Shown here piece after piece: positions 5,789-63,651 of a DNA stretch of 64,000 nt. Under the pieces are notes generated by a model, which saw nothing but the letters and a program-made list of their open reading frames with translations, did no database searches and had not been told where the DNA came from. Position numbers and translations under genes: made by a program. How positions within the stretch are numbered: position 1 is the stretch's first letter; each line of letters begins with the position of its first letter. Source of the stretch: Psococerastis gibbosa (taxonomy: Eukaryota > Arthropoda > Insecta > Psocodea > Psocidae); NCBI GenBank assembly GCA_963971405.1, contig OZ020489.1:6386001-6450000 (forward strand), written 5' to 3'.

Positions 5789-8700
5789 ATGCATAGACGT
5801 GTAGTTGGAGGGAAGCGCATCCGTTTGGATGACCCAATACCCCCAGAGTATGAGAATCCTGAGACACCTATGACTACAGCCGACCATGAAGACATGGGGC
5901 TGACTGAACACTACAGTCGGATGTACGTTGCCAATCCTCCTACACCGCTACACTCGGGGTCTGACATTTACAATGAATCAGAGTATGAAAGGGACGAGTC
6001 TTATGAACAAAACGATCCTGATATGGGCGATGGTAAGTATACAAATATGAAGTTATTAATAAGAAACGGGAATGGCTCAATTTTGGGGCGAGCTATCCTG
6101 CCTATCCCCCTTGATTGAACATATCTATATGTTGAAAAGCTTTTATTTATAATATTAATTAAATATTTAAGCACGTCTATTTACTTTTACCACGTAGCCA
6201 TTTGTCAATCACAAAATTTTCTTTCCTTGTGGAACATGGTGAATATATTGTGTAGCGTAATTCACAACCCCCGTCCATACCCTGTATTTCGATTGTTGTT
6301 GTTGATGTGTGTGTGTTGTAGGAAATTAGTAGTGCAATGCACTAATAAGTTTTCCACTGCTCATTCAATCAGCTCATTCCACTTCACAATCGTTCTCTCT
6401 TTAGTTTATCTTGAAGCCGTTTCCTGAACGTAGTCACTGTTGGTGCTTGTTTAATTGCCTCTGGTAGGTTATTATACTGTACTTGGACCTTCAACGTACA
6501 TTGATTTCATAGAATTCCTGATACCCCTCGCGATGTTGAAGTCTTCTATGTTTCTGGTAAGATGATTGTGTACATCAGATCTCTTCGGTGGTAGGAGATA
6601 TTTTGGCACCATGTTATTAAAAAATTTATGAATAAGTTAATACCTCTTCTTTGAACGCTAAGAACTCAAGTTCATGAAGCATTTGAACAATGGGCGTGTC
6701 CTATGACTTATTGAAAATTATCCGCATTGCTTCGTTAAGCTGAATCTGAACCATTTGTATTATTTCTGTACTAGCTGCAAACCATAATGAAGAACAGTAG
6801 TTGATCTGATAGTAGCATGTAATGCTAATGATTGCCAATAATCCATCGATCACAATGAGCCGTGCTATTAACTATTCCGCGTAATTTTAAACAAAGCACT
6901 CCTGAAGGCGCCCAACTTGTCGATCCTCTTGATTTCAGGATGAGGATGAGCATTTTTGAGATTGAGTAAGAAGTCGGGGCAGAACTATCTTCTGGCCGTG
7001 TTAAATAGGTTTTTTTTTAAAATTATTTTATCACTTTTGGAGAAATGGAGTCTCAAGTCTAGTATTACATTCTGATTATTTTTCTGATAAGTAAAATAAG
7101 CCTTAAAGTGCATAAATCCCAGTTTATATTCCCAACAGTCTATAGGCTACATTAAAATGATTTTATTATTATTTCAGAACTAATAATGAGTCATTTGCCA
7201 GATTACATGGCACCGGGTACGCCTATACCGCAGCGTGTGACCAGAGCAAGAGCCAGGGGATTGAATAATCCACCACCTATCCCTCCGCTAAAGATCCAAG
7301 CCATAAAGCGGGCTATGGAAGATGACCTAACGCAGGATGCCAAGAAACCGGGTCGCAAGAGGCGTAGCGTGTATGGGGGCGCTTCTGTTGGTCGCAGTGA
7401 CGAAAACAGCTTGTACTACATTATCATGCATTCAAGGTGTTCCTTGCAAGTAGGTTTTCTGGCATTCAAGAACTATCTACGTCAGTAATAGTTATTACGT
7501 CAGTTCGCGTTACGTGACAAGCCATGTACAAACCCGTAGGCCTGTAGACGATTATCGCAGTCTCAATCTACCGACGCCTTTTCCATTGTAGGGATAGGGA
7601 TTGGCGAATAGTTCGTGCCAAACTCACAGAGCCTACTTCAGAAGATTTCTATAATTTGGCTTGTCTAGGGGAAAACCAATTTCGTGCTGTGGGGTTCACG
7701 TCAGCTTCCGCAATCCTCAAGAAATCTGCTAGTCCTATGGCTACAATGGAACAGGCGTCGACAAATCGCAATTGGGTGAATCGTCCGCGTGTACCGGGCC
7801 GCCTTTGCCAACAAATGAAAACTAGTATCAGCTCAGCCTTATTTAGGAGTGGGCAGATTTTACTCACAATGGAAAAGTACCTTAAGCCCCATTCGCGCGG
7901 GTTTTTCCCTAATTATATTTTATTACATTTTTTATGTAGTCAGGGTTCAGTGGAGCCAGTTCATTAAAACGTCCTTAGGAAAGTTTTGATAAATGGGTGA
8001 AAACCGCCAAGAGACTACCTGCGCCTGACCTTTAGCACCCTAATTACTTATTCCCCCCTTTAATGGCAGTAGGCTAGCATAGTTCTTTAACTATGTCGAA
8101 GAGTAATTTTTTATAAGACTCATTATATCCGATTATTCACACTGCTGAGTCATCATGCTGATATTGAGGTATTCTTCTGGTAAACACCCACTAGGGATTG
8201 GTTTGCTCTGTCCTCGGCCAGCCTCTTCAGGGTCCCGTGCAGTTAAAGTCTCTGAGCAGCTGGTCAAATACTCTGCAAGCGATATAACCATATTATGTGT
8301 CCTTCCTAGATAGTGTGAAGTAGAATAGAATATCGTATATTTCTGTAGGTGTGGCATGACACATAGAAACCCGTCATATTACATGTATACATTACAGTAC
8401 ATACTATATGTAATGATTTAAATGGTGGTAAAAACATCTTATCCTTAACTTATACAACAGTATATGGTCGAACACAAAAACAAATGTCATACGGTACCAT
8501 GCACTCATCTCAGATCCCTAATGTCATATATTCCCTCGTCAATCAGATATATAATAAGTCGGGCCCTAAAATGGTTACTCTTCCAGTCCATCGTGACGAA
8601 GTGTGTGACCGATCCAATTGACTCTCCGCTTGGCAATAGATGCCCCAATGTGTAACATTTTCCGATAGCACCACACTTCACGTCAGGACCTGTAGAGTAG

Positions 8701-11700: not shown

Positions 11701-14700
11701 ATAAATGAAAAAAGGACCCTTATTGCATCCATATCCACTAGGAGGGCACGCTGGATGGGACACCTGCTTCGGTATGATAACATAGTCAGCTGTGTCATTG
11801 AGGGGACCATGGAAGGCGTAAATCGACGGGGACGGCCACGAAACGAATATCTCCAACAAGTTAAACATGATTTGGGGATAACGTCCTATGTGGAGCTGAA
11901 GAGGTCATGTCAAAATCGCGGAGACTGGAGACATCGCTGCAATATGTTGCTGCCAACCAGCCATCATCCGGCTGTAACTTGAAGAAGAAACTAGTGGGCC
12001 CGTACGAACATCCGCAGAATTTTAGAGCGCCCTTGCGCACGATGGATAAAAGTAAAGAACGATGTAATGGCTTCGATGATGTAGTATGTGGTACAATAAT
12101 TCTATCTATGATAGATGTAGTATTTGCTGCAAACCAAACGATAGATTGCCAAATTCAATAGGAAACTTGTCCATTTCCAACCTATATTTCCCCCGGGGAA
12201 GTCCCGTCTAATGAGTTCCATGTATATGTTTCAGGTGCGTGCATTTCGTCACACAGCCACACTCGCCGCGATGAAGCTGATGACAGCGCTAGTAGACGTG
12301 GCACTAACCGTTTCCGTCAACACTGACAACACACTACGCCAATACGAGGCGGAGCGGCAAAAAGCGCTGAATAAACGTGCGACTGACCGCCTGGAATCGC
12401 TGCAGATGAAACGAACCGAATTGGACGAGAATATGGATGAGATTAAGAACATGTTGACGTACATGTTCAAATCGGTGTTTGTACATCGGTACAGGGACAC
12501 GCTGCCGGAGATACGAGCTATTTGTATGCAGGAGATTGGCGTGTGGATGCGAAAATTTCACACTAACTTCCTTGATGACTCGTATTTGAAGTATATTGGC
12601 TGGACTTTGCATGATCGCGTTGGAGAAGTCAGGTAATGGGAATTTTATTCTTGTCGGGATTGCATGATCGCGTTGTAGAAGTCAGGAGGGCGAATGGATA
12701 CAAAAGCAGAGTTGTTGTTGGCGGTGAAGATGCGGAAACTAACATACTTCGGCCATGTGATGAGAAACGAAAAATATCGCCTTCTGCATGTTATACTCCA
12801 AGGGAGGATCGAAGGACGCAAATATTTATAAACTTCGATCCGGTCATTTCATTGAAAAAAATCACAAAGCTCTGAAAAATTGCATCCTATGGATAAGCAT
12901 AGGGATGCCAGTCTGCTTATTTCGATTGACAGACTATGGTTTTTCCCTTACCCATGAAAGTAACCATTACGGTTTGATGGAATAATTTTCCGTTCTTGTC
13001 GAGTGTCAAACCTCGGCTTTCCGATTCATAGTCCACTTCTCTACCAAATGGACCATTCCCGACCATCAACTCAACAATCGCCTCACACCCATTACCTACT
13101 CCCTTATCTATCTTGTACTCGATCGTTGAGAAAAGCGAGCGTAACAGTATATATTGGGTGCACAGTGTTCAGATAGGTCGGACTACAAGTTGCTGCAAGT
13201 CAAAATTACCCATAAGAAGCCCTTTGTATCCATAAGCTGTGCTGATGGCAGTACTTTGAGTTATGTCAGTATGTCTACGTCATCTATTCTAATTATCGTG
13301 GTTGGTTTCAGACTTAAATGCCTACAAGCGTTGATTCCCCTCTACGAGTCCGAAGAGCTTAAGAGCAAGCTCGAGCTATTCACGTCGAAATTCAAGGACA
13401 GGGTGGTCTCGATGACATTGGACCGGGACTATGACGTGGCGGTGCAGGCCGTGCGGCTGGTAATTTCCATTTTGAAGCATCACCGGGACATGTTGACGGA
13501 CAAAGACTGCGAGCAGGTGTACGAGCTCGTGTACTCGTCGCATAGAGCTGTCGCCCAGGCTGCTGGAGAGTTCTTGAATGAGCGGCTGTTTACCCCAGAT
13601 GAGGATTATTCTGCTATTAGAACGCAAAGAGGTATTTAGTTTTTTGAAGTTATACTTCTTTAGGCGCGAGAGAGTGAATTTTTGAGATGCGCGCGCATCT
13701 GTGACACAAAATTAACAGAATGAAGCTGCCAATAAAATAGAAATAGAACCTCGATATTAGTCGCGCATGTTGGTACACTCGTCACCTCTGATCACTGTTT
13801 TCTAGACAGGTATTGTCATCCGCCATTTAGTATCCATTTTAAGTCTGCTAGTCTGGTCTATAAGCAAAGCATTGGGTGTTTACCGATTTATTTTTAGAAA
13901 TTCATCGTTATTTATTTATTATTATTTTTAAAAAAACGTTCTACCAATTAGGGAAGTGCTTAATAAAAAAATACTAAACGTGTTTTAGTTCTTTTCAATC
14001 TTTTACTTTCTTACAATTCTTACCATATAGGAATTATAGGATACAAAATGGCGGATGACAATACCCGGGTATATAGTGCCTTACTGTTTTCATATTTATA
14101 ATATTTATCAACATGTTTGACACGTTCCTAGTTTCTACATTAACAACACGTGTTTTACTTTCATACGAGTGCGAATGGAGTTCTTGCGCAGGTAAAACAA
14201 AGATGGCGGGCTGTCGGAAAGGGAGGGGGTACCCCTGATTCTCGGACATCACCCCCTCATTTTAACATGGAGTGTATAGGCTTTCCAATGAAATTTATTT
14301 TATTATAAGAAATTTTCGCTTTTCAACGGCAAATTAGTGCTATTTATATGTTCCTTCAATACTTGCGCGGGTACTGACAAAACATTGCGGCAAAGTAGCT
14401 GCAAATAATTGTCGAAAAATATTATTTACTTGTGTATGTGAATGGTCATGGACCATGGACCACCCACCTGGGCACGGCCATGGCCACTGTAAAGTAATGA
14501 CGATATACGTATATTAATATACATTATTGATCCCAATCAAGGCCGTAGCCAGGATATTTCGGGGGGGGGGGGGTGGGGGGGGGGTTCAGAAATTTAACTG
14601 GATATTACATAGTAGTTTATATTTTTCCTCTCAAAATCCGATTCTATTTAGTATCAAGCCATTTCATCACGGGGGCGGGGGGGGGGGGGGGGCGTAATTT

Positions 14701-17700
14701 ATTATTGAATTAATGGTCATCGAGCAATACAGGTTTACATAGGAAAAATTATTTCGGGGGGGGGGGGGGGGGGGTCCGGACCCCTTGGACCACCCACCTG
14801 GGCACGGCCATGGCCACTGGAAAGTAATGACGATATGTATTAATATACATTATTGATTCCAATCAAGGCCGTAGCCAGGATTTTTCGGGGGGGGGGGGGG
14901 GGGTTCAGAAATTTAATTGGATATTACATAGTAGTTTGTATTTTTCCTACCATAACGCTAGAAATATGAATAATAACATCTTAAAACTTTAAAAATCAAT
15001 AGCGCTCAATGCATTTCATATCCTCCAATGGCCGAACAGCTGATTTTGTTTACATTATTTTCGCAATCACGCATGTGCTGTTAGTTCCGCCCTCTTACTG
15101 TGACGTCACTACGCAAGAACTCCATTATATATGTGCTAATAAATTATATTCAGTAGTGATTTAAATTGATAATTTTGATTGATATTATTTACTATTCGTG
15201 AATATTAGTGAAAAAAATTGTGCTTATATACTTTTTCAAGTGCTCCAATATAATTGAGGTTAACGATCCGTACGCATTATTTCTTGATATAAATTAAAAT
15301 ATTTTTATTTAATATAATTAACACTAAATATTATTAAATTATTAATGTTAAATATTTATTATTGGTTATTTAATATTTACACAATTTTATTATTTTATTG
15401 TAATTAAATATTTGCATGTAATTAAAAACTATTTTTTAATTATGCCAAAGAAGTATAACTTCTCACGCGGGTTCATAAGTGCACGCACCCACTTTTTAAA
15501 TAAAAATGAAACACATACAGTATATAAAATAATAAAATAACATATCGATAAGGAGGGACTGTAGCAATCACCCCGGTTTTGTAGAAACTTTTATTTTTCA
15601 TGGTATGTTATGCTGGCATGGCAGCTTTCTACGTTTTCTATCAGAGTTCAAAATAAGCACAGTAAATGTATGTAGACTACTCCCTTCTTGTCATCTGACG
15701 GGCTGTTCTGATGAACTTCCCGCGCGTAATTTGGGTTTATTAATATGTTTGATTTCAGGTAAAAAGAGGTCACCCAACACGCCGCTGATCCGGGACTTGG
15801 TTCAATTCTTTATCGAGTCTGAACTGCACGAGCACGGAGCGTATCTTGTCGATTCTCTCATAGACTCGAACGCCATGGTCAAGGACTGGGAGTGCATGAC
15901 GGATCTGTTGCTCGAGGACCCTGGCCCCAATGAGGAGACCTTGGACAACAAACATGAGACTTCCCTAATTGAACTTATGGTAAGCGCCAGGAACTTGTGT
16001 CGGTTTTGTTTAGATTAACATGGCCCTGCTGAATTGGTCGGTATAGCACATGACGCCTTGAACGAGCTCGGAGCGTACCTTGTCCATCCCCTCATAGACT
16101 CGAACGCCATGGGCAGTGGCAGTGCATGATCGATCTCTTGCTCGACGACCCTGGCCCCAATGAGGGGACGTTGGACAACAAGCATTTGGCCCTGCGTAGT
16201 CCAGTTTAAAGACGGATGAACAATGGAGGGTTGCAACTTCTTAGCGACTTTGGTGGCAAGGCGGCAGCGTGCTTGTACTTGTGCGAGTCTCTACACTCCT
16301 TGAGGTCGGAGACGTGTCGTAACTCGACACAAGTACCTAATAGGTGACTTAGTGAGGCGATTGAGGAGGTTAATCGGATACATTTATTCAATTGTTTGTA
16401 CGCGATTTAACCTTTTATAAGGCCCCCATTCCACATACGTACAACGTCAATGAAAATTATGAAATTGATGGTGGCAGCAGAATTTTTAGTATGTAAAAAT
16501 GTCTGCTGCCACCATCAATTTCATAATTTTCATTGACGTTGTACGTATGTGGAATACCCCCCTAAAAAACAAAAACAAATAAAACTTGGTATAAAAGGAA
16601 AACTTTAATTTTCCTATTCCTTTCCTTTTCGGGCAGGTAGAAAAGTAATATTTTCCTTTCCCGTCAATCATTGGCGTTATTTCTTGCTAAACATGATAGA
16701 TTTAGGACACATCAAAATATTTTCTTCAAAATTTGTAGGTGGAAAAACGGGAGTCTGACAAAGGTGGGATGGCAAATGTCATCTCGTGCCACCCCTTCTT
16801 ACGATTATGCCTAATGGATAGCTTGGTTCATCGCAATAACACATCTGCCGTTTTCCGTACTGGTTCTAACAAGTTGATTGAAATTCCTTCTGTAGGTATG
16901 CGCAATTAAGCAGAGTGCGACTGGTGAGCCGCCTGTGGGCCGCGGCAGCAGTCGGAAGCTTCTCTCCCAAAAGGAAGTGAAGGCCATACAGGACGACAAA
17001 CAGAAATTGACGTCCCACTTTATCGTCACTCTGCCCCTGCTACTTGAGAAGTTTAGTTCAGGTAAGTGTTGAAGAGGGCAGAAACGGTCTTCCTGCGACA
17101 AGGGTTGCCACTCTTGTTCTTTGTCATCGTCATCATCAATAATAGAATAGATTAGAATAGAAAAACCATGTATTTATCAACAAAAATGAACATGTGAACG
17201 TGAAATAACAACCTGTGCCCCCTCAAGCCGAAGCGTGGGAGGGTGGCACGTACGACTTACATTTACACTTACAAACCTAATATAAGTTCAATATTAATAA
17301 ATATTAACATGGAAAACAAGAAAAAAGCCGACTATTGTCCTTGTTAAGCAATGTAATAAATTGTAATGCAATGTAATTAATACAATGTCTAAGTTTCTAT
17401 TAGAATTTTTTTAAATTTACACATACAAAGCGGACTTGTTACTGAAATGCATTCCTAAGTAAAAATAAATAAATACATAAATTACAATACGTAGTTAGTT
17501 TAATTGACATAATTCCCCCTCCAGCCAGAGTACAATTTCACGTTTATAAGCCTGTACTGTTTTTTTTTCCTGGTGAATCGCTGATGTAGGTGCGTTTATT
17601 TGTGTAATTGTATAATGTTACTGCTTGGTATAGTAGTAAGCGCCGCGAGTTCGTCTTGTTCCATTTAGGGAGTGGCAGTACTTGAAACGCTGTGGACCTA

Positions 17701-23700: not shown

Positions 23701-25024
23701 CGTGACAATTTGGTCGGTGACTCGGTGTAGAAAATACAGATTTCATAGGACTAATCGATCGTAAAGCGATAAATGAAAAGTCATAAGGTAGATGAAACGT
23801 TTCTCTACATATTGTTTGGGCATTATGTAGCAATAATTAATTATAAAGCTATAATCAACCTCATAATTGTTTAAAAACAGCTCGCGGGTGTGAGATTAAT
23901 GAGCATTCTCCACTCCTTTCTGTCTCTTGAATTCTGGCGAGTCCTTGAGTTCGCCAATTGTAGGATATTCACTCGGATAGGTGGAAATATGGGCAAAACA
24001 TCTAGTCGAAGGTTCAGCAAAGAATGAGCATTATATTAGAGGCGTAGTCCGTAAAGCGTACATGAGATACATAACATCGGTTTGACCCTTGGAGATCCAG
24101 CACGAGAATAGAGGGTTACTTGCGTGCAGTGGGGAAACAGGTATCCTGTGTGTGGCCCAAACGAATAGGGTGGTCTAAAGACTGTGTGAAGGGACGACAT
24201 GTATTTGGGCTTGTTGTAGGGCCGCAACACCAATAAACTATTAAAGTTCTTTCTTTGCTAACTAAAACTATTACCTTTAGATTCGCTGTAAATCCGCTGG
24301 AGAATGTGGATGACCCGACAGGACCGCCTCCTAACATCCTATTCCTCGATATAATCCTCGAGTTCACAAACAAGCTGCTCAAGCAAGACAAACGCCTCGT
24401 CCTGCAGTTTCTCGACAAGAAGATTAGCCCGGGGATGCCGTCGAGCCGCGGCGAGGACTGGCAGCCACTAGTGTCCTATAGGAATACTCTCATACAAGGT
24501 AAGCTATTTGTCATCTTATTCCTCGAGTTCGCAAAAAAGCTGCTAAATCAAAGGAAGCGGCTTGTCTTACGGTTTCTCGACAAGGAGATTAGCCCGGGGA
24601 TGCGGCGAGGACTGGCAGCCACTAGTGTCCTATAGGAACACTCTCATACAAGGTAAGCTATTTGTCATCTTATTCATCGAGTTCGCAAACAAGCTGCTAA
24701 ATCAAAGGAAGCGGCTTGTCTTACAGTTTCTCGACAAGGAGATTAGCCCGCGGATGCGACGAGGACCGGCACCCACTAGTGTCCTATAAGAAAACTCTCA
24801 TACTAGGAAAACTATTAATCATCTTATTCCTCGAGTTCACAAACAAGCTGCTCAAGCAAAAGAAGAGGCTTGTCTTACAGTTTCTCGGCATGGATGTTTT
24901 TTGAAGTGAAGTAATTTGGTATACTTTAATTTCAGGGGAAGCAGATCAGCCCCCTACAACGTCAAGGAGAGCTTACAGGGCTAGAAAGAAAGACCAGGAG
25001 GAAGATCATGAAGACGACGACTAA
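5789..25024 (+). CDS. STAG: Cohesin subunit SA / STAG (stromal antigen), 15 coding exons
   Basis: This is the HEAT-repeat subunit that binds RAD21/SCC1 in the cohesin ring and loads it on chromatin. Exons: 5789-6032, 7178-7449, 9282-9480, 11483-11625, 12235-12632, 13312-13631, 15759-15979, 16896-17061, 19060-19279, 20638-20894, 21560-21778, 22565-22928, 23367-23507, 24281-24498, 24936-25024. All introns are GT-AG; the exons sum to 3471 nt, with all phases closing to give 1156 residues (human STAG1/2 about 1230-1270). Family landmarks in order are [11 protein letters not shown] (exon 3), [21 protein letters not shown] (exon 4), [19 protein letters not shown], the stromalin conservative domain from about residue 368 ([16 protein letters not shown]), [19 protein letters not shown] (exon 6), [14 protein letters not shown] (exon 7) and FDLELYT (exon 9). 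The C-terminus is short: only 29 residues follow the VSYRNTLIQ motif, ending in a basic then acidic tail. The start context is AAAAATG, and only this ATG gives the conserved MHRR opening. Exons 5, 7 and 14 have decayed tandem copies beside them. Confidence 0.96.
6440..6850 (-). mobile_element. Degenerate LINE reverse transcriptase fragment in STAG intron 1
   Basis: Read on the minus strand, broken frames resemble the C-terminal part of a CR1/Jockey-type reverse transcriptase ([13 protein letters not shown], then a VPKY-like and a NIARGIRNS-like stretch), with several stops and frameshifts. The rest of intron 1 (6033-6440, 6850-7177) shows nothing I recognise. Confidence 0.5.
7450..9281 (+). 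other. STAG intron 2
   Basis: The intron contains the SINE at 8681-8905 and a copy of dispersed repeat H (about 8998-9130, CAAGCGATAATGGACAAGCTGAG) that recurs inverted at about 22290-22390 and again at about 42455-42545. An open frame of about 100 codons at 7656-7967 has no recognisable motif. I see no other structure. Confidence 0.5.
8681..8905 (+). mobile_element. tRNA-derived SINE, copy 2
   Basis: This is the same head, body and TTTATTTA tail as the copy at 3764-3974. ACTTCA at 8675-8680 and 8906-8911 is a plausible target-site duplication. It lies in STAG intron 2, in sense orientation. Confidence 0.85.
9813..10364. mobile_element. MITE in STAG intron 3
   Basis: The ends are inverted: AAGCCGGGTTTA at the left (9814) and TAAACCCGGCTT at the right. 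Weaker inverted similarity continues inward (ATCGTTACGATTTATCG against a right-arm CGTATATCGTAGCG). There is no transposase frame inside. Confidence 0.6.
10390..11345. mobile_element. Repeat family B, large foldback copy in STAG intron 3
   Basis: The left half (10400-10680) carries AACTTGGTAGTGTGCACAG and GGTCACCTCCGAACTAATCG. The right half (10960-11200) carries the inverse of both. Related copies or halves occur at about 38370-38640, 44815-45080, 45190-45600, 48140-48370 and 56340-56710. Apparent short proteins in this interval are frames through the repeat. Confidence 0.75.
11655..11990 (+). mobile_element. LINE C-terminal fragment (RTE-like) in STAG intron 4
   Basis: A frame of about 100 codons, with [31 protein letters not shown] and an [18 protein letters not shown] stretch, is the typical C-terminal end of an RTE-like reverse transcriptase. 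The CQNRGDWRH and NMLLPTSHH ending matches other fragments at about 19815-20580 and 43980-44045. It is truncated at the 5' side and sits in sense orientation. Confidence 0.75.
12657..12684 (+). pseudogene. Tandem copy of the 3' end of STAG exon 5
   Basis: TTGCATGATCGCGTTGTAGA and the bases after it repeat the last part of exon 5 (12607-12633) with one mismatch in 27, 51 bp downstream. The donor is altered from AGGTAATG to AGGAGGGC, so this copy could not splice. LINE sequence begins immediately after it. Confidence 0.75.
12685..12850 (+). mobile_element. LINE C-terminal fragment (RTE-like) in STAG intron 5
   Basis: One frame reads as the conserved RTE-type C-terminus ([20 protein letters not shown], then [18 protein letters not shown]). 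It is a 5'-truncated fragment. The remainder of the intron to 13311 has nothing else I recognise. Confidence 0.75.
13632..15758 (+). other. STAG intron 6, with a tandem poly-G repeat
   Basis: A block beginning GGACCACCCACCTGGGCACG, continuing to GGCCGTAGCCAGGAT and then a run of about 17-20 G, occurs at about 14455-14640 and again at 14788-14950. Two further poly-G runs lie between (about 14672-14692 and 14757-14774). ATGGCGG motifs occur at 14049 and 14203. The rest is very AT-rich and featureless to me. Confidence 0.65.
16056..16186 (+). pseudogene. Decayed tandem copy of STAG exon 7
   Basis: About 130 bp resemble exon 7 (15759-15979): the shared stretches include GAGCTCGGAGCGTACCTTGT, CTCATAGACTCGAACGCCAT and CTGGCCCCAATGAGG. 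The copy has a deletion in the middle (after GCCATGG), an early stop and no recognisable flanking splice sites. It begins about 75 bp after the true exon and is probably non-functional. Confidence 0.85.
16240..16395 (+). repeat. Dispersed repeat next to the exon 7 copy
   Basis: The stretch around TGTACTTGTGCGAGTCTCTA and the following CGTAACTC...ACACA...GGTTA order recurs at about 44095-44230, where it follows a LINE tail. It is probably the 3' UTR of an RTE-like element. Confidence 0.5.
16428..16555. repeat. Perfect 54-bp inverted repeat (hairpin) in STAG intron 7
   Basis: Bases 16428-16481 and 16502-16555 are exact reverse complements over 54 bp, with a 20-nt loop between. The arms contain GATGGTGGCAGCAGA. 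Such perfection suggests a very young foldback MITE; a transcribed hairpin giving small RNAs is possible, because it lies within STAG pre-mRNA. I have no evidence for the latter. Confidence 0.9.
17544..18329 (-). mobile_element. LINE reverse transcriptase fragment antisense in STAG intron 8
   Basis: A 261-codon open frame carries the thumb/connection region of a Jockey- or CR1-type reverse transcriptase ([20 protein letters not shown], then [13 protein letters not shown] and [22 protein letters not shown]). The palm motifs (FADD etc.) are missing, so the element is 5'-truncated. No transposition is expected from this copy alone. Confidence 0.85.
19602..19772. mobile_element. Palindromic MITE (family G1) in STAG intron 9
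   Basis: About 170 bp with terminal inverted repeats GCAGCCTGATCGAGGCG / CGCCTCGATCAGGCTGC, and inner arms TACCGGTATTTATTTAA / TATTTAACCCCG. The same element is inserted in the SINE at 62375-62748, and a diverged inverted core lies at 50530-50620. A run of 14 G sits just upstream (19560-19573). Confidence 0.85.
19810..20580 (+). mobile_element. LINE tail split by foldback element D
   Basis: The outer parts (about 19820-19960 and 20490-20580) resemble the RTE-like tail at 11655-11990: a [12 protein letters not shown]-like frame with [12 protein letters not shown], then the GTTGCTGCCAACCAATCG ending. A family D foldback (about 20040-20435) lies between them. Confidence 0.6.
20040..20435. mobile_element. 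Foldback MITE family D, copy 1
   Basis: Inverted arms carry GTTTCCACCGACCTCTCA on the left and its inverse GAGGTCGGTGG on the right. Two nested arm pairs are present. The core has AATTGATCAATGATCATAGA. Copies lie at about 30560-30895 and, partly, at 53690-53830. Confidence 0.75.
21370..21530 (-). mobile_element. LINE tail fragment antisense in STAG intron 10
   Basis: On the minus strand the sequence resembles the RTE-like tail of 11655-11990 (a [12 protein letters not shown]-like stretch, then an EGINRPGRP-like stretch), heavily decayed. The rest of intron 10 shows nothing I recognise. Confidence 0.4.
21960..22400. repeat. Repeat remnants in STAG intron 11
   Basis: Bases 22085-22190 (GAAGATGTCCACCGCAAATG ... 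TCGACCCTGGCCCAATCTAC) recur inverted and diverged at about 55840-55930. Bases 22290-22390 are an inverted copy of repeat H (see 8998-9130). No gene is seen. Confidence 0.45.
24499..24900 (+). pseudogene. Three decayed tandem copies of STAG exon 14
   Basis: Directly after the exon 14 donor, the sequence repeats exon 14 with a unit of about 154 bp: copy 1 at 24499-24652, copy 2 at 24653-24807, and a truncated copy 3 at 24808 to about 24897. Copy 1 keeps the exon end CATACAAG and a GTAAGC donor; copy 2 has lost its donor (GGAAAA). All lack the segment ATGCCGTCGAGCC between the ISPG and GEDW codons, which shifts the frame. Reading through the real donor stays open to 24635, so intron retention would give an alternative C-terminus. 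Confidence 0.9.
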
Positions 25025-30121: not shown

Positions 30122-30157
<36 letters not shown>

Positions 30158-40806: not shown

Positions 40807-42339
40807 AAAACCGAGATCCGTGTATTACAAAGATACAACGATAACTAGGGTAACTTGATACCCAAATATACTACGAAAAACTACGAATGGTTTGCTGCTG
40901 TCTATTTTCGAGTGTTCTTCTTCTTCACAGGTACAGCTTCCTTAAGGAAGCAAGGCGCGAGGCTTCGTGAATCTTTTTTATTTTTTACACTCTGAACCAA
41001 TTAACAAGGAAGGTGCGATCTAATAGGTTTTCTTTACATTAAATACAGCACCTATATGTGAGTTTAGTCGAGTTACCGCCAGACGGACATTTCCTAAAAA
41101 TCGTGAAAATCCGTTGAAATCTCGAAATCGAAAATTTTCGACCCACAAAGCTTTCCTTGTACTAACTTATAAAGTAGATTAGGTCAATAGTGGTAAGCTA
41201 AAACTGACGCATAGTAGACAAAGGTCAGCCTAAAAATGTAAAACAGCATTGCAGCATGGCCGCAGGTATCCATGAAATTCCTTACTTAACTTATGTATTC
41301 TTCCCATTAAATTTTTATTATTTGGCTGTGTTGTAGAAAAGAGGATGTGGAGCGCTGTAAGCAGAAGGATTTCTTAGAGGCAATGCTCTTGGAATTAGCC
41401 GGAGAATTTCCCAGTTTGACGCAGACATTAGTCCACGAGAGAGACAAGTACCTCACATTCAGTCTGCAGAATGCTGCTACAGCATCTGGTCTGCTGTCAG
41501 ACAGTCAGCAGCCTATAAGGTAAGCAGTAGAGGTGGTGAGCGGGTGACGCTGCAGTCAGAAAGACTTCCTAGAGGGGCAGTGGGCAGATATTAATTTGAT
41601 AAGGCTAGGATTAGGCTATGCAGAAATTAAGTATTGGCGATCCTTTTCTACATTTCTACCTTTTGAGGCATCAATCACTATTCTCATTCTCAATACCATT
41701 CATACCCTGTATCTAACTGCACACTGCAACAGCTACGCTCTAGCCTACATAGTGTACAGAAGCAGAAATCGTGCGCATAGCGTGAGTATGGTCAAGATGG
41801 GCCACATTCCCGGGGTTCAGGAACATTTCGAGACTGCTTCCAACAAAGTTGGCTGATAGTCCCACTTTCCTCTCTATCGTCCCGGGTCTTTAATCTCGGG
41901 TAAATTTCCATATTCTTGTACTATTTCTGTGATTAATTTTTGCAGGGTTGCAGGCGTGGTCGGGATGGGCCACGTTCCCGGGGTTAAGGAACATTTCGTG
42001 ACTGCTTCCAACAAAGTTGGCTGAAAGCTTTTGTCCCGCTTCCCTGTCTATCGTCCCGGGTCTTTAATCTCGGGCAAATTACCATATTTTTATACTATTT
42101 CTGTGATTAATTTTTGCAGGGTTGTAGGCGTGGTCGGGATGGGCCACGTTCCCGGGATCAAGAAACATTTCGGGACTGTCACAGACGAGGAAGCCCGGCA
42201 GCTTATGATTGTCCCGCCTCCTAGCCTATCGTCCCGGATATTCAAGTTGACCATTCGAGGCGTCATCATAGGCGGTATTGCCTATGGTGCCTATAAAGTT
42301 CTGCCCTACGAAAGAATCATCCAGTTTGCCCGGCGCTGA
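28330..42339 (+). CDS. TRABD: TraB-domain-containing protein (TRABD), 6 exons
   Basis: Exons: 28330-28510, 34626-34739, 38038-38295, 40166-40442, 41337-41519, 42120-42339. All introns are GT-AG and the sum is 1233 nt (410 residues) with phases closing. The N-terminus (1-98) is acidic, Ser/Thr-rich and has a repeated [12 protein letters not shown] stretch; only the part from about residue 115 is conserved. The TraB/PrgY-like domain shows VVGTAHFS (about 130-137), [24 protein letters not shown] and [20 protein letters not shown] (exon 4), [14 protein letters not shown] (exon 5) and [13 protein letters not shown] (about 339-351, exon 6). A hydrophobic segment (about 375-400) near the C-terminus may be a membrane anchor. 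Animal TRABD proteins are poorly characterised; a related TraB protein acts at mitochondria, so the function here is unassigned. The ATG has a CAAAATGG context; an upstream TTTTAG at 28291-28296 may be the acceptor after an untranslated exon. A defensin gene lies antisense in intron 1. Confidence 0.94.
29262..31059 (-). CDS. Insect-type defensin, two coding exons, nested in TRABD intron 1
   Basis: This is a secreted antimicrobial peptide precursor of 90 residues. Exon 1 (30948-31059) encodes a signal peptide (residues 1-18, [18 protein letters not shown]) and part of the propeptide. Exon 2 (29262-29422) encodes the propeptide end (HGARLAR) and a 45-residue mature peptide starting ATCDLLS and ending GVCHCRK. 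The donor is CAAG|GTAAGC and the acceptor ATTGCAG|AT, phase 1. Six cysteines (48, 65, 69, 81, 86, 88) follow C-X16-C-X3-C-X11-C-X4-C-X-C, the CS-alpha-beta defensin pattern; the third loop (X11) is two residues longer than the common X9. [10 protein letters not shown] and GGRC are family hallmarks, most like hemipteran and coleopteran defensins. Defensins of this kind disrupt Gram-positive bacterial membranes and are induced through Toll/Imd. An untranslated first exon and a TATA promoter lie upstream. Confidence 0.93.
29563..29782 (-). mobile_element. tRNA-derived SINE, copy 3
   Basis: This is an inverted full-length copy with an AATAAATAAATAA tail at the left and the tRNA-like head at the right (CCACTACTCTATATGTCC). 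It lies in the defensin intron, in the same orientation as the defensin gene. Confidence 0.85.
29870..30152 (+). mobile_element. LINE 3' end fragment and TA microsatellite
   Basis: This is a second copy of the fragment at 900-1245 (ELRAARNA-like frame, then AGAGAAAGCTTTCTAC). It ends in a (TA)n tract at about 30125-30152. It lies in the defensin intron. Confidence 0.7.
30330..30495. repeat. Foldback in the defensin intron
   Basis: The left arm (30332 to about 30400, with GGGGGCACCGCCCTACTCCA) and right arm (about 30425-30494, with GGAGTAGGGCGGCACCCCCG) are near-perfect inverted copies that meet around AAGAATTCT. Confidence 0.8.
30535..30930. mobile_element. Foldback MITE family D, copy 2
   Basis: Its outermost arms are CCCATTCCATTGACCGGCTA (30545) and its inverse ending at 30922. 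Inside are the family D arms (TTTCCACCGACCTCGCA) and the core seen at 20040-20435. It ends 26 bp before the defensin exon 1 donor. Confidence 0.8.
31060..31088 (-). other. Defensin 5' UTR, second exon part
   Basis: A TGTTTGTTTAAG acceptor (AG at 31089-31090 on the minus strand) precedes the ATG by 29 nt. Joined to the leader exon at 31779 onward, it gives a conventional short 5' UTR. The boundary is inferred from splice-site form only. Confidence 0.5.
31779..31949 (-). promoter_or_regulatory. Defensin promoter: leader exon, TATA box and two kappaB-like sites
   Basis: On the minus strand a TATAAAA (31829-31835) stands about 50 bp before a good donor (CACCG|GTAAGTAA, exon end 31779). Transcription would therefore start near 31800-31806 and give a leader exon of about 25 nt. 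Upstream are two NF-kappaB/Rel-like sites: GGGGAAGTCCC (31912-31922) and GGGAGTCCCC (31940-31949), roughly 80-115 bp from the TATA box, a usual arrangement for insect immune genes. Motif matches are exact; function is inferred. Confidence 0.75.
31980..32075 (+). repeat. Second tRNA-like sequence
   Basis: CAGTGGGTAAAGAACTGTAC and GGAGTTCGAGACTCGAC resemble A and B boxes of a tRNA-derived SINE that differs from the main family. It is short and without a tail. A comparable antisense element is near 43615-43680. Confidence 0.35.
32360..32530 (-). repeat. Repeat family A, inverted copy
   Basis: GAGCAAGTCTCAAATC, GTGGGTTTCCCTCTGTAGAT and GTGGGTTTCTTTGACA follow the order seen inverted at 49690-49835 and, in the same orientation as here, at 25345-25480. 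Confidence 0.7.
32625..32750 (-). promoter_or_regulatory. Duplicated copy of the defensin upstream region
   Basis: This stretch repeats 31890-32010 (shared words CGTTTATCTGAGA, TGTGGACTCCT, GGGAGTCCCC) and carries GGGGAAATCCC (32649-32659), a canonical kappaB site, plus a second GGGAGTCCCC (32678-32687). No TATA box follows; a family A repeat (about 32360-32530) sits where the core promoter would be. It is either a distal enhancer or the remnant of a second defensin gene. Confidence 0.65.
33194..33500 (+). mobile_element. hAT-like MITE remnant
   Basis: CAGTGGTTCCCAAACTTTTT at the left end is the typical hAT terminus. No clean right terminus is visible before the SINE fragment at about 33500, so it is truncated or interrupted. 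Confidence 0.4.
33497..33655 (-). mobile_element. tRNA-derived SINE, copy 4 (partial)
   Basis: Inverted; the body (GCCCTCTCTACACTCAACTA) and head (CCACCTTTCAGGTGAAAATC) are present, but the AT-rich tail is missing. From 33655 to 34600 I see no recognisable element. Confidence 0.75.
35125..36290 (+). mobile_element. LINE with reverse transcriptase, in TRABD intron 2
   Basis: A 184-codon open frame holds the palm of a non-LTR reverse transcriptase: [40 protein letters not shown] and [10 protein letters not shown] (the catalytic ADD). After 35693 the frame breaks many times, but the sequence continues to the end of the ORF ([10 protein letters not shown]-like frame near 36270). The FPDIKKAFD block retains D, and PQGS is present, but the copy is dead. 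A 3' part of the same family lies inverted at about 53890-54830. Confidence 0.85.
36587..37135 (+). mobile_element. Repeat family E, copy 1 (TIR element with poly-G and CAGA tracts)
   Basis: The ends are inverted (CTTTCCAATTTAT at 36587 and ATAAATTGGAAAG at 37135). Inside are a run of about 20 G at 36671 and a CAGA tract at about 36990-37012 after CGAATTTCATCAAAATCGAC. The length is about 550 bp, against about 855 bp for the other two copies. It is non-coding. Confidence 0.8.
37578..37836. mobile_element. Foldback with an internal 68-bp tandem duplication
   Basis: The terminal arms are ACAAAGGGTTAGTTGG and CCAACTAACCCTTTGT. The left half contains two successive copies of a unit (AGATTGCCTGTTGTATTAGT ... 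CATAGAACAATT) with a period of about 68 bp. The right half carries one inverted copy of the GGCAGG...CTCACAGTC portion. Confidence 0.75.
38370..38645 (+). repeat. Repeat family B, copy 2
   Basis: This has the same order as 10400-10640: ACCAAGTTCAATCCAGCGGA, AACTTGGTCGTGTGCACAG, GGTCACCTCCGAACTAATCG, then CACTACTACTACTA. It lies in TRABD intron 3. The 81-codon frame here is shared with 10404 and 44834 because it is the repeat. Confidence 0.75.
38820..38972. repeat. Inverted repeat around ACTTGATACACAAT
   Basis: ACTTGATACACAATATCACA at about 38823 is mirrored by ACATTGTGTATCAAGTAG near 38949-38966. It is a short AT-rich foldback in TRABD intron 3. Confidence 0.55.
39040..39440 (+). mobile_element. 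LINE C-terminal fragment in TRABD intron 3
   Basis: The fragment reads (with a frame change) as a reverse transcriptase C-terminus: [20 protein letters not shown], then [18 protein letters not shown] and [18 protein letters not shown]. It is truncated at its 5' end. From 39440 to 40165 I see nothing else that I recognise. Confidence 0.8.
40749..40804 (+). repeat. (GA)n microsatellite in TRABD intron 4
   Basis: About 28 uninterrupted GA units lie in TRABD intron 4. A partial family E fragment follows at about 41075-41170 (AATCCGTTGAAATCTCG). Confidence 0.95.
41772..42119 (+). pseudogene. Two tandem copies of TRABD exon 6 upstream of the real one
   Basis: The real exon starts at 42120; exon-like copies start at 41946 (copy b) and about 41772 (copy a), giving a period of 174 bp (58 codons). 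Copy b keeps the full acceptor (TTTTTGCAG) and reads in frame for 26 codons ([14 protein letters not shown]...) before a TGA at 42022-42024. Copy a has lost its acceptor but ends in the same ASNKVG-stop. Both share CTGCTTCCAACAAAGTTGGC in place of the real exon's sequence, so one derives from the other. Use of copy b would truncate the protein before the hydrophobic C-terminal segment. Confidence 0.92.
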
Positions 42340-47160: not shown

Positions 47161-47193
<33 letters not shown>

Positions 47194-53889: not shown

Positions 53890-54830
53890 TACAAGTTTTT
53901 TTTTACAATTATAGGGGTGACTTACCGCAGGACTAGTCCGTGTGCGGTTTAGGCTTTTATACAAATAACTCAATAACTACAAATAACTGTATGGAAACCA
54001 AAGTTGAATTATGCTTGTTTTGTTGTTGTGTTAGTATATTAGTATAATCACGTAGGCTTCCATCGCCGGAGTCTGGTGAGGAGACAAAGGGATGCGAGCT
54101 AATAGGCCGTGGTCGATCCGCTCGTACTCCTCCGTCACCTCATGTTAGTGTATTAGTAATTAGTAATATGTTAGTATTGTGTGCGTAAAAGATTGGAGAT
54201 ATTCTGTGTGTTATTTATTTTTTTGTCTATCTTATGCATCTATTTCTTGTTTTACCCATATTTTTAATTGTTTTTTGAATGCTGTCATGTTTTCGATTGC
54301 TTTTAAATTTATGTTTAATCTGTTGTAGTGTTTTATTCCTACGTATTGCGTTTGGTGTTGTATTAGTGTGGTTCTTGCACGTTGCTGCAGCAGTGGGCGT
54401 GTGTGCTGCCTTCTTGTATCATAGGGATGTTCATATAGGGGTATTATGTGTCTATTTTTTGTATTTCAATTATTGATTCTTTTATAAATAACTATCTGAT
54501 CGAAAGTACTTCAGCTGTTTGGAACAGTTCTGTTGTTGGGTGTCTGTTGTCTACTCTGTAGATAATTTTTAGGATTTTTCTTTGTACTACATTCAGCTTC
54601 TCTATCACATTTTGATATGCTCCTCCCCATGCAGTTATTGCATAGCTCAAGTGCGATTGCACTATTGCGTAGTAAATAATTTTGTTTAGTTTAATGCTGA
54701 CTATGTTTCGCAATTAGACGAAGTTATGTAGTGTCTTCTTTAGTTTTTTTGTCGTGAGTATTATTTGGTGGTCCCATTTTAATTTTTCATCTATGATTAT
54801 TCCTAATTTTTTACTGCTGTTAAAATGCGT
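53890..54830 (-). mobile_element. LINE 3' part (same family as 35125-36290), inverted
   Basis: On the minus strand, 54492-54713 reads [20 protein letters not shown], then [19 protein letters not shown] and [20 protein letters not shown], matching the decayed part of the TRABD intron 2 LINE. Further on, the CGCACACGGACTAGTCCTGC block matches 37430-37452. Confidence 0.8.
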
Positions 54831-56046: not shown

Positions 56047-59000
56047 CTAATTATCTTTCTTTCCCTTCTTGTTGTAAGTCTGTATGTAAAAATTTCCAAA
56101 CAGGATAATGAGTAGAGAAACAGCGGCTAAACTAAAATATACCAAGGCGTAAGAGCACTGACAGTCGTTCAGCAATAACCAAATTCCATATATAGCGCCT
56201 ACCACAAATTGTATCTGAAAATTACAAAAAAGTCATGATAATTTTTAGGCTATTCAAAGATAGGCAAAAAATACAACAAGCAACGATAATTAAATAGAAA
56301 TGATAGCGCCTAACCACAAGCTAAGTAAGGCAGATAGGTTTGTTTGTTTGTTTTCCAACATCTGCTTTTAGGTTTCTGCTTTGAGCAACCCTGTAAGTCT
56401 GGCGGGGGGAGTGAGCCTGTTTGTTAACTTGAGGTACCCTAAGGGCAGACTTTTCACCTCGGGGGAAAGGGGAGTTGACTGACAGGATGGACCTCCTGAT
56501 TATAGTGGATTCCGAACCACTTGAGGAACATGGTAAAGTCACAGGATTAAATCGGAGGTGACCAGGACTCGACACGCACTTAGACTGGCTGGTATAATCT
56601 CTGCACGTTGTCATGTCCCACTATGTTCCTCTGCCAACGCTGTGCACACTACCAAGTTTTCCGCAGTTTGGAACAGCCTCTGAGCTGGTTGATTCAACAT
56701 GGTATTTGGTTGGCAGATAGGTGGCATTTTTCAAATTGTCGTAGAAATACCTAATCAATTTTTATAAATTTAAGATGTCCGATTTGCTATTAATATAGGC
56801 CTACGTCGACTTACCAGCTGAATTTTGGTTAAATGCTTCTTCCACGAAGTGTATTTGGCATATTTCGGACCTAGCGCTGTTATAAAATAGTAGGTGTACA
56901 TTATCAGATGGACGAAAGTGTTCAGCATGGAGCATATCTGTAAGGACGGGTCTGAAACCAATCAATAAATGATAAAATTATCAGGTGGATGAAAGTGTTC
57001 AGCATGAAGCATATCTGTGAGAACGGGTCGGAAACCAATCAATAAATGATAACATTATCAGGTGGATGAAAGTGTTCAGCATGAACCATATCTGTGAGAA
57101 CGGGTCGGAAACCAATCAATAAATGATAACATTATCAGGTGGATGAAAGTGTTCAGCATGAAATATATCTGTAAGGACGGGTCTGAAACCAATCAATAAA
57201 TGATAAAATTATCAGGTGGATGAAAGTGTTCAGCATGAAGCATATCTGTGAGAACGGGTCGGAAACCAATCAATAAATGATAACATTATCAGGTGGACGA
57301 AAGTGTTCAGCATGGAGCATATCTGTAAGGACGGGTCTGAAACCAATCAATAAATGATAAAATTATCAGGTGGATGAAAGTGTTCAGCATGAAGCATATC
57401 TGTGAGAACGGGTCGGAAACCAATCAATAAATGATAAAATTATCAGGTGGATGAAAGTGTTCAGCATGAAGCATATCTGTGAGGACGGGTCTGAAACCAA
57501 TCAATAAATGATAACATTATCATGTGGATGAAAGCGTTCAGCATGAAATATATCTGTGAGGACGGGTCTGAAACCAGTCAATAAATGATAACATTATTAG
57601 ATGGACGAAAGTGTTCAGTATGGAGCATATCTGTAAGGACGGGTCTGAAACTAATCAATAAATGATAACATTATCAGGCAGATGGATGAAAGTGTTCATT
57701 TACCATTTTGAATGTCCAGAGAAGAGATGAAACGTCTTTATTAAAGTATATTCAAAACATGGCACCCCCAGGCAGTACTCCCAGTCACTGAACGACAAAA
57801 TCTAATCACTTGCAGCCCTATTGTGGCGATTTGAAAGAAGAAAGAAAGAAAATTGTCTTTATTTTCCATGTGTTCGAATTTTTTGGCCTTACTCTTACAA
57901 TTAACCCACAATATTGTTACAAAAATACTACAATATTATTATAAAAATAAATAAATAAATACATTTCTACACAGATTTGGGTATAACGTAACGTTTTAAA
58001 CAAAAAAGTGCAAATAAGCGGGAAATTCAAATTGATAAATTGATCCTTGGCTATAGTTTTGGTATTTTACAATTTTTTCTCCCTTAGATGTAGACACATT
58101 GAGACACATTAATTTTTCTTACTTTTAATTTTTTTATAAATTAACAAAGCAAGTTATTGAAGATTTGGCTCATGTAGGTTGTATAATGCCTAATATAATA
58201 GGAAATATTACATTTTTGGTACATTAGTTCTTCTATAAAAACCAGTGGGGACTAAAATTTCGCGTATTCTGAGATTTTTGGAAAAACTATAAAACCGAAA
58301 AATAAAAATACCCGATTATATGATGCACGAAGTAGTCTTCTATGACTTTTTGTACTTAGCATGTCCTCTTAATTAAAATTCTTATTATATTCCAAAATTC
58401 TATACCTGTACATTTCATTGTTTATTAGTAGCCTATTTCCTTTAATTATAAAACATTGCAACCATTCTCTTGTATTCCAGTAATTTTGAATTTCCCGCGC
58501 ATTTTGCACTCTTTTGTTTAAAATAATTGAATCAATAGCTAACACAGTGGGGGTTTATTTTAACACGTCACGTGGCACATTTCTAATGCGGTATTAAAAA
58601 TAAACCGTGGTATTATATAAAGCCCGGCGTTACGTTTATCCCAAATCATAATAGGGCTGCTGGCGATATAAAATGTCGCCCAGTTTGTATATTATTTTAT
58701 GTTCTATTCAAAAATTCTATACATGTACATTTCATTGTTTATTAGTAGCCTATTTCCTTTAATTATAAAACATTGCAACCATTCTCTTGTATTCCAGTAA
58801 TTTTGAATTTCCCGCGCATTTTGCACTCTTTTGTTTAAAATAATTGAATCAATAGCTAACACAGTGGGGGTTTATTTTAACACGTCACGTGGCACATTTC
58901 TAATGTGGTATTAAAAATAAACCGTGGTATTATATAAAGCCCGGTGTTACGTTTATCCCAAATCATAAATATAAAATGTCGCCCAGTTTGTATATTATTT

Positions 59001-62000
59001 TATGTTCTATTCAAAAATTCCCAATACCTATAGCTATGTGAGCTCTACTCTCTAAATTATAATAGTAAGAAAATACCTTGTATGTATTTGAAGTAAGCAA
59101 AGGCGACCGAAATTACGGTAGCGTGATGGTAGATGTGCAAGAAACTGATCTGCCTATTCCTTTTCCTCAGAACAATGAACACGGTGTCGCACAGGTCAAA
59201 GATCTTGGCTAAGAAGTACAAATAGGCGATATGGGCCATGTTAGGGTGGAGCTGCTGAGGCGAGCCCAAAGGTCTGCATGGCGATGTGAAGGTGGGCATA
59301 ATACCATCCAGTAGAAATGGCTGAAACATACGGTAGGCAACATTGGCATAAATTTTAATGATTTTGGGGACTAAGTTTATTGACCTTTTTAGGGAGATTC
59401 ATCTATCTATTGAGATTGTGACCAATGTTCCACTTTCGGAAAATTTCTTCACAACTTTTCATTTCATGACCCCCTGAGCCTAAAACCACCCTCCGTTCAA
59501 AATGTTATATATATATATATATATATATAGATACATAATTATGAATTATACACTGTACAATATACTAGTATATCAATCAATCAATCAATCTTTGTCCATG
59601 ACCCACCAAGGTGGGATAGACGGCGTCCAAAACAAAAAACATCTAGAACAGAAACAAAAAATTTCATGCGGAAGCATACGTTAGATGGGGGGAGGGGGGA
59701 GGTTATGTTTGAGCATCCCAGCTTATTTCCCTGAACTCGCTCAAGCTGTACAGTGGACATTCTTTAATTTTCCTGTATATACTGTATATATATGTATATA
59801 TCGATTTTAGGAAACACTTCCGTAAATATTATCCGATTTTGATAAAACTTGGCACAAAAATTGATCACAGAAATGCCTTGATCGAGTTCGTTAACCAGCT
59901 TGATCCACTATTTAGTTACAAGATGGCGGCCGATTGAAACCTTGTATAATTCATATCTCAGTTAATATTGGTCGCAGAGGAATGAATTTAAATCTGACTG
60001 AAAGCCCGTATTACTATCTACGATAATGATAATCGACACTTTTTACGACAATTTCAAGATGGCGTCCAGCCTAAGTAAAAATAATTTAAAAAGTAAAAGT
60101 TCATAGTCGTCATTGTTTGGAACACAAGAGTGTTTTGGGTGTTGATGTTGTGGTCGGGAAAATAATGAAGTATATTTTATTGATGTGACAACGTCTAATA
60201 AATCAATGAGCGCTGGCTGGAATACTAGGTGCATGTGCGAAAATTGTGACGTCATGCGTGATGTTCGTGGGTGATGTTGGTGGGTGATGTTGGTGGATGA
60301 TGTGCATTCGTAACGAGGGTCTGTAACGCGGGTTTAAAGCAGATGTAGTAGGTCTATCTCAATTTAAATTACATACTCATGTCTTCGTCTATTCTTCCTC
60401 TTTCAGGCCATGCTATATTTGTTAAGAAAGGGCAAGGGGTTTGGCTTTGGGGGTGTGAAACTTGAGGAGGTGCGCCCAAATTTGGTCCGAATTTGCCGAT
60501 TTTAATAGAAACAGGCCCTTCTCGGCCGCGTTTTTGGGAATGTTAATATCTATTTGAAAACTTCAAACTACTTTAGTTCTTTTCCGCCTTTCTTACTCTT
60601 TCCCGACATGTATTCAGTTTTACTATCCGTCTCTTCGTTCAGGCTCAGGTGAGTATATAAGCCTTTCGTGTTTCGGCGGAAAATAGGTTCAAAGGGTACT
60701 TTTCAATTTACATGCATAGAGTAAAAAATTCCAAAGCCTGCAATTTTCAACCGAAATTAATTTTTAATCTCTCATTAGAAGCAGTATGAATTAAGGTTTC
60801 AAACGAGTATAAATACATATTTTGAAATTCACCGCATCACCCGTTAAACATGAGTGGAATACAAATTTGGTAAAAAATGACGCATTTCCAGCAATCCCAT
60901 TTGAATTGCATGGGTGGGTTTAAAGGAATTTTTATGGGCTGATTTGGAAGGCATATGTTAATTTAAATTATGTCCATGTCTTTGTCTATTCTTCCTCTTT
61001 CAGGCTATTCTATATTTGTGGTGATCAAGAAAGGGGTTTGGCTTTGGGGTTGTGAAACGTCACGGGGTCACGATTTTCAACAAAAATAGGCCTCTTTCGG
61101 CCGCGTTACTATCTATATAAAAAATTCAAACTACTGAAGGGCTTTTGAGGTTTTCCACATTTCTTTCTCTTTCCAGCCATATATTATTTAAGTTAATTGG
61201 TTAATTAAGTTTAAGTTAATTTTGGCATTGGCGTTGTCACGTTAAATTATCGTCCGTAAACCGACTTTACAACCGACTTACAGACAACCAATTTTTTTTA
61301 TTACATAGGCTGATCGGCCTGAGCCTAAAGGTTTTTTTTCTTTATTGCTGGTACTGTTTCTTACCTGTACAAGAATGTAGATGGCTGATGCGATTTGTAG
61401 CAGGTTGTATACTTGCAGTAAGCCTTTAAGTTCGAAGGGCTCTCTATTAGCCATAAACGAAGGACCCAGCCATAACACAAATAACAGGTATGCGATAACT
61501 ATCGAGATGGAAGGAACGGGACTTCCCATCAGCCAAAAAGCGTCAATTTCTGTGCAATAAAAAATGATATATTAGAAAGAAAGAAAATTGTCTTTATTTT
61601 ACAAGTGGACGAATGTTTGGTTTATCGGCTCACTCTTATACGAACAATTAACCCATTACCGCAGAGGTAGAATACATATAGATAGTATTTTGTCTCTGAT
61701 AGTTTGTACAGTATTTAACTTACATGTAAATTATAGAGGGTTCATGACGTATTCAGTGGTAATTTCAAGCTATTTACATGACATTATTGCATACTAATGG
61801 AGAATAGAGGAGAATATGATGTTTGCCATACTTAATGAAATAAGAAAAATACTTCTCAAACCTATAGTGTTGGGTATGCTGTTGTACCGTACAACTTGTA
61901 CGGAAGTAAATTATGGCACATTTATGAACAGAAAAAAAAGCTAGAAGCGTTCAAGATGTGGCGCTCTTGCTATAGAAGAATTTTGAAAATATATGGTGAT

Positions 62001-63651: not shown

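What the first reader, a model, noticed from the sequence alone, without database searches (positions are those of the whole stretch)
5789..63651. Repeated tandem copying of exons with their splice sites
Five exons in three of the five intron-containing genes have decayed copies directly beside them: STAG exon 5 end (12657), STAG exon 7 (16056), STAG exon 14 (24499-24900), TRABD exon 6 (41772-42119), and elongase B exon 4 (56981-57710). The copies cross exon-intron boundaries, so they are DNA-level duplications and not retrocopies. Unit lengths differ (51, about 300, 154, 174 and 77 bp). A genome in which short local duplications repeatedly catch exons, leaving decoy splice sites, is something I have not seen described as a general feature. 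It may reflect error-prone replication or repair, or simply that duplications over exons are the ones a reader can recognise.
Basis: partly seen in the sequence, partly recalled or inferred. Interest (0 to 1): 0.85.

Follow-up and report, generated by a model that had tools for sequence, protein, structure and literature searches.

The report
Tandem repeats straddling exon edges
In this arthropod DNA, short stretches of genes have been copied next to themselves, in three cases carrying duplicate splice signals along; the same kind of structure is known from lancelets, and this one window does not show that exons are special targets.

Summary
The five exon copies are real, and a search of all 34 exons finds these five and no others. 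Details need correcting. Only three cross an exon-intron junction: STAG exon 14 (154-bp unit), TRABD exon 6 (174 bp) and elongase B exon 4 (77 bp, about 10 units). The STAG exon 7 copy matches the exon's interior, starts 79 bp away, and has offset 234, not 300. The STAG exon 5 copy stops at the junction. Seven decoy splice sites are intact; six score at least as high as the real site.

A residue survives: of five contiguous head-to-tail arrays, three cross splice junctions (P 0.0095; 0.029 with an assumed detection correction; post hoc, n = 5).

[quoted passage not shown] passages read). Most likely this is the same kind of thing in an arthropod: ordinary tandem duplication, tolerated because one intact exon edge remains. 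Own-genome searches did not complete.

The parts
24281..24498 (+). STAG exon 14, functional copy with donor GTAAGC at 24499
24499..24894 (+). about 2.5 further units (154 bp) of the exon 14 end plus the start of the intron; donor intact in copy 1 (24653, same score as the real one), lost in copy 2 (24807); copy 3 truncated
42120..42339 (+). TRABD exon 6 (last coding exon), functional copy with acceptor TTTTTGCAG
   Evidence: Pfam PF01963
41789..42119 (+). two decayed upstream units (174 bp): copy b (exon part from 41946) with an acceptor identical to the real one, copy a (from 41789) without a usable acceptor
56815..56951 (-). elongase B exon 4, functional copy; its first 54 nt and 23 nt of intron form the 77-bp unit
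   Evidence: Pfam PF01151
56952..57698 (-). nine further 77-bp units plus a partial tenth, upstream of exon 4 on the coding strand; acceptor AG kept in 5 of 9, changed to CG in 4 of 9
12596..12632 (+). end of STAG exon 5 that has a copy nearby
12651..12686 (+). copy of the end of STAG exon 5; stops at the junction, no donor
15825..15955 (+). interior of STAG exon 7 that has a copy nearby
16059..16185 (+). decayed copy of the interior of STAG exon 7, with a 4-nt gap; 79 bp after the exon, not contiguous with it
37600..37720 (+). control: non-exonic contiguous tandem duplication, 59 bp, 98%, inside one arm of an inverted repeat (37577-37662 / 37756-37835)
58385..59020 (+). control: non-exonic tandem duplication, 317 bp, 94%, in elongase B intron 3, the same intron as the 77-bp array

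Best explanation
These are ordinary short local DNA duplications in a repeat-rich arthropod genome. Three happened to include a splice junction and grew by further unit copying into mirage-like minisatellites. They survived because a duplication across a junction leaves one complete exon edge: the 5'-most unit keeps the working donor (STAG14), the 3'-most unit keeps the working acceptor (TRABD6, ELOB4), and the other units fall into the intron. The intronic units then decay, while in the elongase array units have been copied over one another, including the one with the exon. Shown here: the copies, the junctions, the decoy sites, repeated rounds at STAG14 and ELOB4, and similar overall rates in exons and random windows. 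Inferred: the mechanism (slippage or unequal exchange), neutrality, and that splicing still picks the right site.
For: 5/34 exons and 252/1,700 random windows have local copies. Contiguous tandem duplications also occur outside exons (37600, 58385). Copies carry intron plus exon at three loci. Use of a decoy would break the protein in each case tested: STAG decoy 1 runs into a stop within its 154-nt extension, TRABD decoy b meets a stop, and all 9 elongase extensions meet a stop at the same codon. Stepwise history: copies 1 and 2 of STAG14 share changes and an 11-nt gap absent from the exon, while copy 3 agrees with the exon at three sites where copies 1 and 2 do not. Elongase units 1, 4 and 6 are identical over 77 bp and, with unit 2, share the AG-to-CG change; unit 5 is 1/77 from the exon unit although adjacent unit 1 is 7/77 away. 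The synonymous share of exon-copy differences is above the neutral value for STAG7 (0.38 against 0.20), STAG14 (0.29-0.56 against 0.22) and TRABD6 (0.36 against 0.26), as expected of a constrained exon beside a drifting copy; the elongase units scatter on both sides of neutral (0.17-1.0 against 0.22); counts are small.
Against: Among 5 contiguous arrays (class drawn up by me from offset and aligned length), 3 cross a junction (expected 0.57, P 0.0095), and exons exceed random windows for contiguous arrays alone (3/34 against 37/1,645, P 0.041). By single-unit footprint 5 of 11 loci touch exons against 1.9 expected (P 0.027; all 13 loci P 0.047). Some random-window hits lie in element-like or simple repeats, so the control rate may be too high. 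A real junction preference is not excluded. No RNA or read data.
Confidence: 0.74

Rival explanations
1. Splice junctions are preferred birthplaces of tandem arrays (a true 'mirage' process shared by lancelets and this arthropod), for instance through transcription- or splicing-linked breakage and repair.
For: 3 of 5 contiguous arrays cross a junction, P 0.0095, or 0.029 if exon copies stay detectable 1.48 times longer (an assumed exon rate of 0.35). Of the four separate TRF arrays with units of at least 30 bp, three cross junctions and the fourth (37600) has only 2.1 copies. Lancelet mirages sit at exon edges too.
Against: n = 5, post hoc, in a finding picked because of this feature. Over all 11 loci, 3 junction crossings against 1.13 expected is P 0.090, over all 13 P 0.103. 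Overall rates are like those of random windows. 5 of 11 loci on exons by full footprint is P 0.25.
Confidence: 0.14
2. The copies are functional: decoy sites or copied exon parts are used for alternative splicing, or for tuning mRNA levels through premature stops.
For: Seven decoys keep intact sites, six scoring at least as high as the real one. The STAG14 read-through stays open for about 45 codons and encodes an exon-like peptide before its stop. Mutually exclusive exons are believed to originate by tandem duplication (PMC6071210, abstract read).
Against: Each decoy use tested (1 STAG, 1 TRABD, 9 elongase) ends in a stop; no copy aligned is a complete exon with both sites; in lancelets such repeats are reported not to disturb regular splicing.
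Confidence: 0.06
3. Assembly artefact: mis-joined haplotypes create false local copies.
For: One lancelet mirage appears aberrantly assembled in the draft genome (PMC3087553, passage read). No reads could be checked.
Against: Exon-copy identities of about 83-92% over most of the length (98% for one elongase unit), gaps, and units of different ages in one array do not look like two alleles joined. The unit number of the 77-bp array could still be wrong.
Confidence: 0.04
4. Some copies came with mobile elements (captured exon fragments) and not by tandem duplication.
For: STAG5 and STAG7 copies are not contiguous and cross no junction. By eye, the sequence after the STAG5 copy looks like a retroelement reading frame; this is recall and was not searched.
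Against: Within the window, the STAG7, STAG14 and TRABD6 loci have no second match more than 2.5 kb away at score 60 or more, ELOB4 for 2% of its length (STAG5 was not among the loci of that call). None of 15 local inverted-repeat loci, the class that looks like mobile elements, touches an exon.
Confidence: 0.02

Closest known systems
[quoted passage not shown] Adh3, globins BflGb6 and BflGb9, troponin C, PGBD5)
   Same: Units span an exon edge plus intron, at either the 3' or the 5' boundary; units of 10-72, 60, 108 and 150-160 bp there, 77-174 bp here; unit identity 81-100% in BflGb6, about 83-100% here; many but not all units keep AG/GT; signs of unit homogenisation (PMC3087553 and PMC3902484, passages read)
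   Different: Here an arthropod (arthropod defensin gene); no haplotype, RT-PCR or instability data; in elongase B the exon-bearing unit itself is nearly identical to an inner unit
Internal tandem repeats at exon-intron boundaries in human segmental-duplication genes
   Same: Tandem units overlapping splice boundaries; 162 alignments before and 27 intron modifications after manual inspection (PMC2812944, passages read)
   Different: There recent paralogues with transcripts showing novel introns; here single host genes with decayed intronic units
Intron gain by tandem duplication of exonic sequence
   Same: Local duplication of coding sequence next to splice signals (PMC2891723, abstract read; PMC4974935, listing and start of abstract)
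   Different: Here an existing intron is lengthened; whether any intron position is new was not compared with orthologues
Tandem exon duplication leading to mutually exclusive exons
   Same: Local exon duplication with flanking intron (PMC6071210, abstract read)
   Different: Here only exon parts are copied, and the copies are broken

Membership tests
Lancelet-type mirages | tandem units spanning an exon-intron junction | tested here: met
   met for STAG14, TRABD6, ELOB4; not met for STAG5 and STAG7
Lancelet-type mirages | some units retain AG/GT splice signals, others not | tested here: met
   STAG14 1 of 2 decoys, TRABD6 1 of 2, ELOB4 5 of 9
Lancelet-type mirages | concerted turnover of units | tested here: met
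   ELOB4 only: units 1, 4, 6 identical; unit 5 is 1/77 from the exon unit
Lancelet-type mirages | regular mRNA splicing despite decoys | not testable with these tools
   no RNA data
Lancelet-type mirages | length differences between haplotypes | not testable with these tools
   one sequence only; own-genome search did not complete
Mutually exclusive exons | second copy is a complete exon with both splice sites and an open frame | tested here: not met
   partial copies with stops or gaps
Intron gain by tandem duplication | a new intron position in the gene | not tested
   intron positions were not compared with orthologues

The most novel reading that the evidence does not exclude
Splice junctions are genuine hot spots for the birth and growth of tandem arrays in animals as far apart as lancelets and arthropods, so that genes of some lineages are studded with arrays of competing, near-identical splice sites that the spliceosome must ignore by position alone.
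Probability: 0.14. Interest if true: 0.72.

Novelty: new member of a known kind. Interest (0 to 1): 0.34.

Why it matters
The arrays are natural splice-site competition experiments: in one elongase intron five upstream acceptors keep AG, four of them scoring at least as high as the real one, yet only the last can give a working protein. If lancelet-type mirages are common in arthropods too, they are a mutational class worth annotating, a likely source of wrong gene models, and raw material for intron change. If they are not enriched at junctions, they simply show what tolerated tandem duplications look like.

Tried and rejected
Overall exon enrichment: not supported by the matched-window test. 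Treating all five loci as one class was rejected, because STAG5 and STAG7 lack the junction. Copies as alternative exons: rejected for lack of a complete copy. Breakpoint microhomology: looked at by eye in printed sequence only; no breakpoint could be fixed. Lineage beyond 'arthropod' was not settled. Whole-genome and relative comparison: not obtained. Papers: ten searches. One search returned nothing; two searches gave mostly papers on alternative splicing. No arthropod mirage was seen, but only listings were scanned (at most 20 rows each, 12 of 4,051 papers, 12 of 86), of open-licence papers only. The original Adh3 and troponin C papers were not seen; they are cited through PMC3087553 and PMC3902484.

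Full report
What is in the window. I rebuilt six genes from the sequence: NAC-alpha (one coding exon), the cohesin subunit STAG (15 exons), TRABD (6), an arthropod defensin (2) and two elongases (5 each), 34 exons and 7,173 bp in all, with GT..AG at all 28 introns. Pfam matches are TraB, ELO, NAC, STAG (first 654 residues given) and arthropod defensin. The organism is therefore very probably an arthropod; I did not settle it further.

Checking the five copies. Each exon was aligned locally to its own 1-kb flanks. A tile scan of the whole window that ignores gene models finds 13 local direct-repeat loci (one low-complexity hit dropped), five of them on exons; a BLAST scan finds 13 loci with four on exons, missing STAG5. 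The three strong cases are contiguous arrays: STAG exon 14 (154-bp unit, 92% matches, 2.9 copies by TRF), TRABD exon 6 (174 bp, 89%, 2.3 copies) and elongase B exon 4 (77 bp, 91%, 10.4 copies). They carry exon plus intron. The other two are different: the STAG exon 7 copy is an interior piece at offset 234, 79 bp beyond the exon, and the STAG exon 5 copy is 37 nt that stop at the junction.

Decoy splice sites. With weight matrices from the window's own introns (the tested sites left out), the STAG14 decoy donor at 24653 scores 11.5, the same as the real one, and the next decoy is dead (-1.4). The TRABD decoy acceptor at 41946 scores 8.8, the same as the real one. Of nine full elongase decoys five keep AG (13.4 three times, 11.2, 14.5; the real one 13.4) and four have CG. 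So seven decoys are intact; six match or beat the real site and one is weaker. GT and AG positions of the window have median scores of -4.7 and -5.4 (plus strand). Each decoy use that I tested (1 STAG, 1 TRABD, 9 elongase) ends in a stop. The working site is the one that leaves the exon whole.

History of the arrays. STAG14 copies 1 and 2 share changes and an 11-nt gap against the exon, and copy 3 agrees with the exon at three sites where they do not, so the array grew in at least two rounds. In elongase B, units 1, 4 and 6 are identical and with unit 2 share one splice-killing change, and the exon-bearing unit is one difference from unit 5 but seven from unit 1, so copying between units has included the exon unit. 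Synonymous shares of exon-copy differences lie above neutral for STAG7, STAG14 and TRABD6 and scatter around it for the elongase units.

Is there a link with exons? I ran it within the window. At the threshold of the shuffled maximum, 5/34 exons and 252/1,700 random non-exonic windows have a local copy; without windows touching the five arrays, 202/1,645; without two dispersed-repeat clusters as well, 163/1,593. At score above 100 the figures are 4/34 and 86/1,700. Two cautions: the random windows overlap one another, so P values are approximate; and some of their hits lie in element-like or simple repeats (for example near 24-541 and 37600), so the rate for single-copy intron may be lower than given. 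Placing loci at random: 5 of 11 loci touch exons (two dispersed-repeat loci dropped) against 3.5 expected by full footprint (P 0.25) or 1.9 by single unit (P 0.027; 0.12 if exon copies stay detectable 1.48 times longer, an assumed value). With all 13 loci it is P 0.047. Crossing a junction: 3 of 5 contiguous arrays, P 0.0095 (0.029 scaled); 3 of all 11 loci, P 0.090; 3 of all 13, P 0.103. None of 15 local inverted-repeat loci touches an exon, against 5 of 13 direct ones (Fisher P 0.013); I read the inverted ones as mobile elements, by form only.

My reading of these numbers. A general bond between exons and duplication is not shown. A narrower bond between splice junctions and contiguous arrays is suggested by three loci and cannot be told from luck, since the finding was picked for them and I drew up the class afterwards. 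Survival gives a simple reason for the form (inference): duplications inside exons damage proteins, while those across a junction leave an intact exon edge.

Known kind. Lancelet genes carry 'mirages': tandem repeats across intron-exon boundaries in Adh3, globins, troponin C and PGBD5. Units are 10-72 bp (Adh3), 60 and 108 bp (PGBD5) and 150-160 bp (globins); BflGb6 units are 81-100% identical, only some keep splice signals, two haplotypes have 6 and 3 units, and RT-PCR suggests regular splicing (PMC3087553 and PMC3902484, passages read). Human internal tandem repeats at exon-intron boundaries are also described (PMC2812944, passages read). The window's three arrays meet the three mirage features that I could test; splicing and haplotype length could not be tested. 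I saw no arthropod report in the listings of ten searches of an open-licence library, which is weak evidence of absence.

Limits. The own-genome search did not complete (13 attempts), so there is no genome-wide rate, no relatives, no reads and no RNA.

Noticed in passing
37577-37835: A 59-bp tandem duplication lies inside one arm of an inverted repeat (37577-37662 / 37756-37835).
   Followed up: partly
30535-30930; 10656-11370; 44917-45480; 1603-1826; 62638-63826: Local inverted repeats (15 loci in the window) that look by form like small foldback or terminal-inverted mobile elements; none touches an exon.
   Followed up: partly
29262-31059: An arthropod defensin gene (two exons, minus strand) nested in the first intron of TRABD on the opposite strand.
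   Followed up: partly
35139-35693: Reverse-transcriptase fragment (PF00078) of a retroelement inside a TRABD intron.
   Followed up: no
42180-42201 against 42006-42027 and 41838-41856: Within the TRABD array a stretch of about 22 nt of the working exon differs far more from both copies than the rest does, while the two copies agree with each other, as if that patch was replaced or evolved fast.
   Followed up: no
14560-14900, 19560, 36670, 53210, 55150: Repeated runs of G or C of about 10-20 bases, several next to what looks like the same element end (seen).
   Followed up: no
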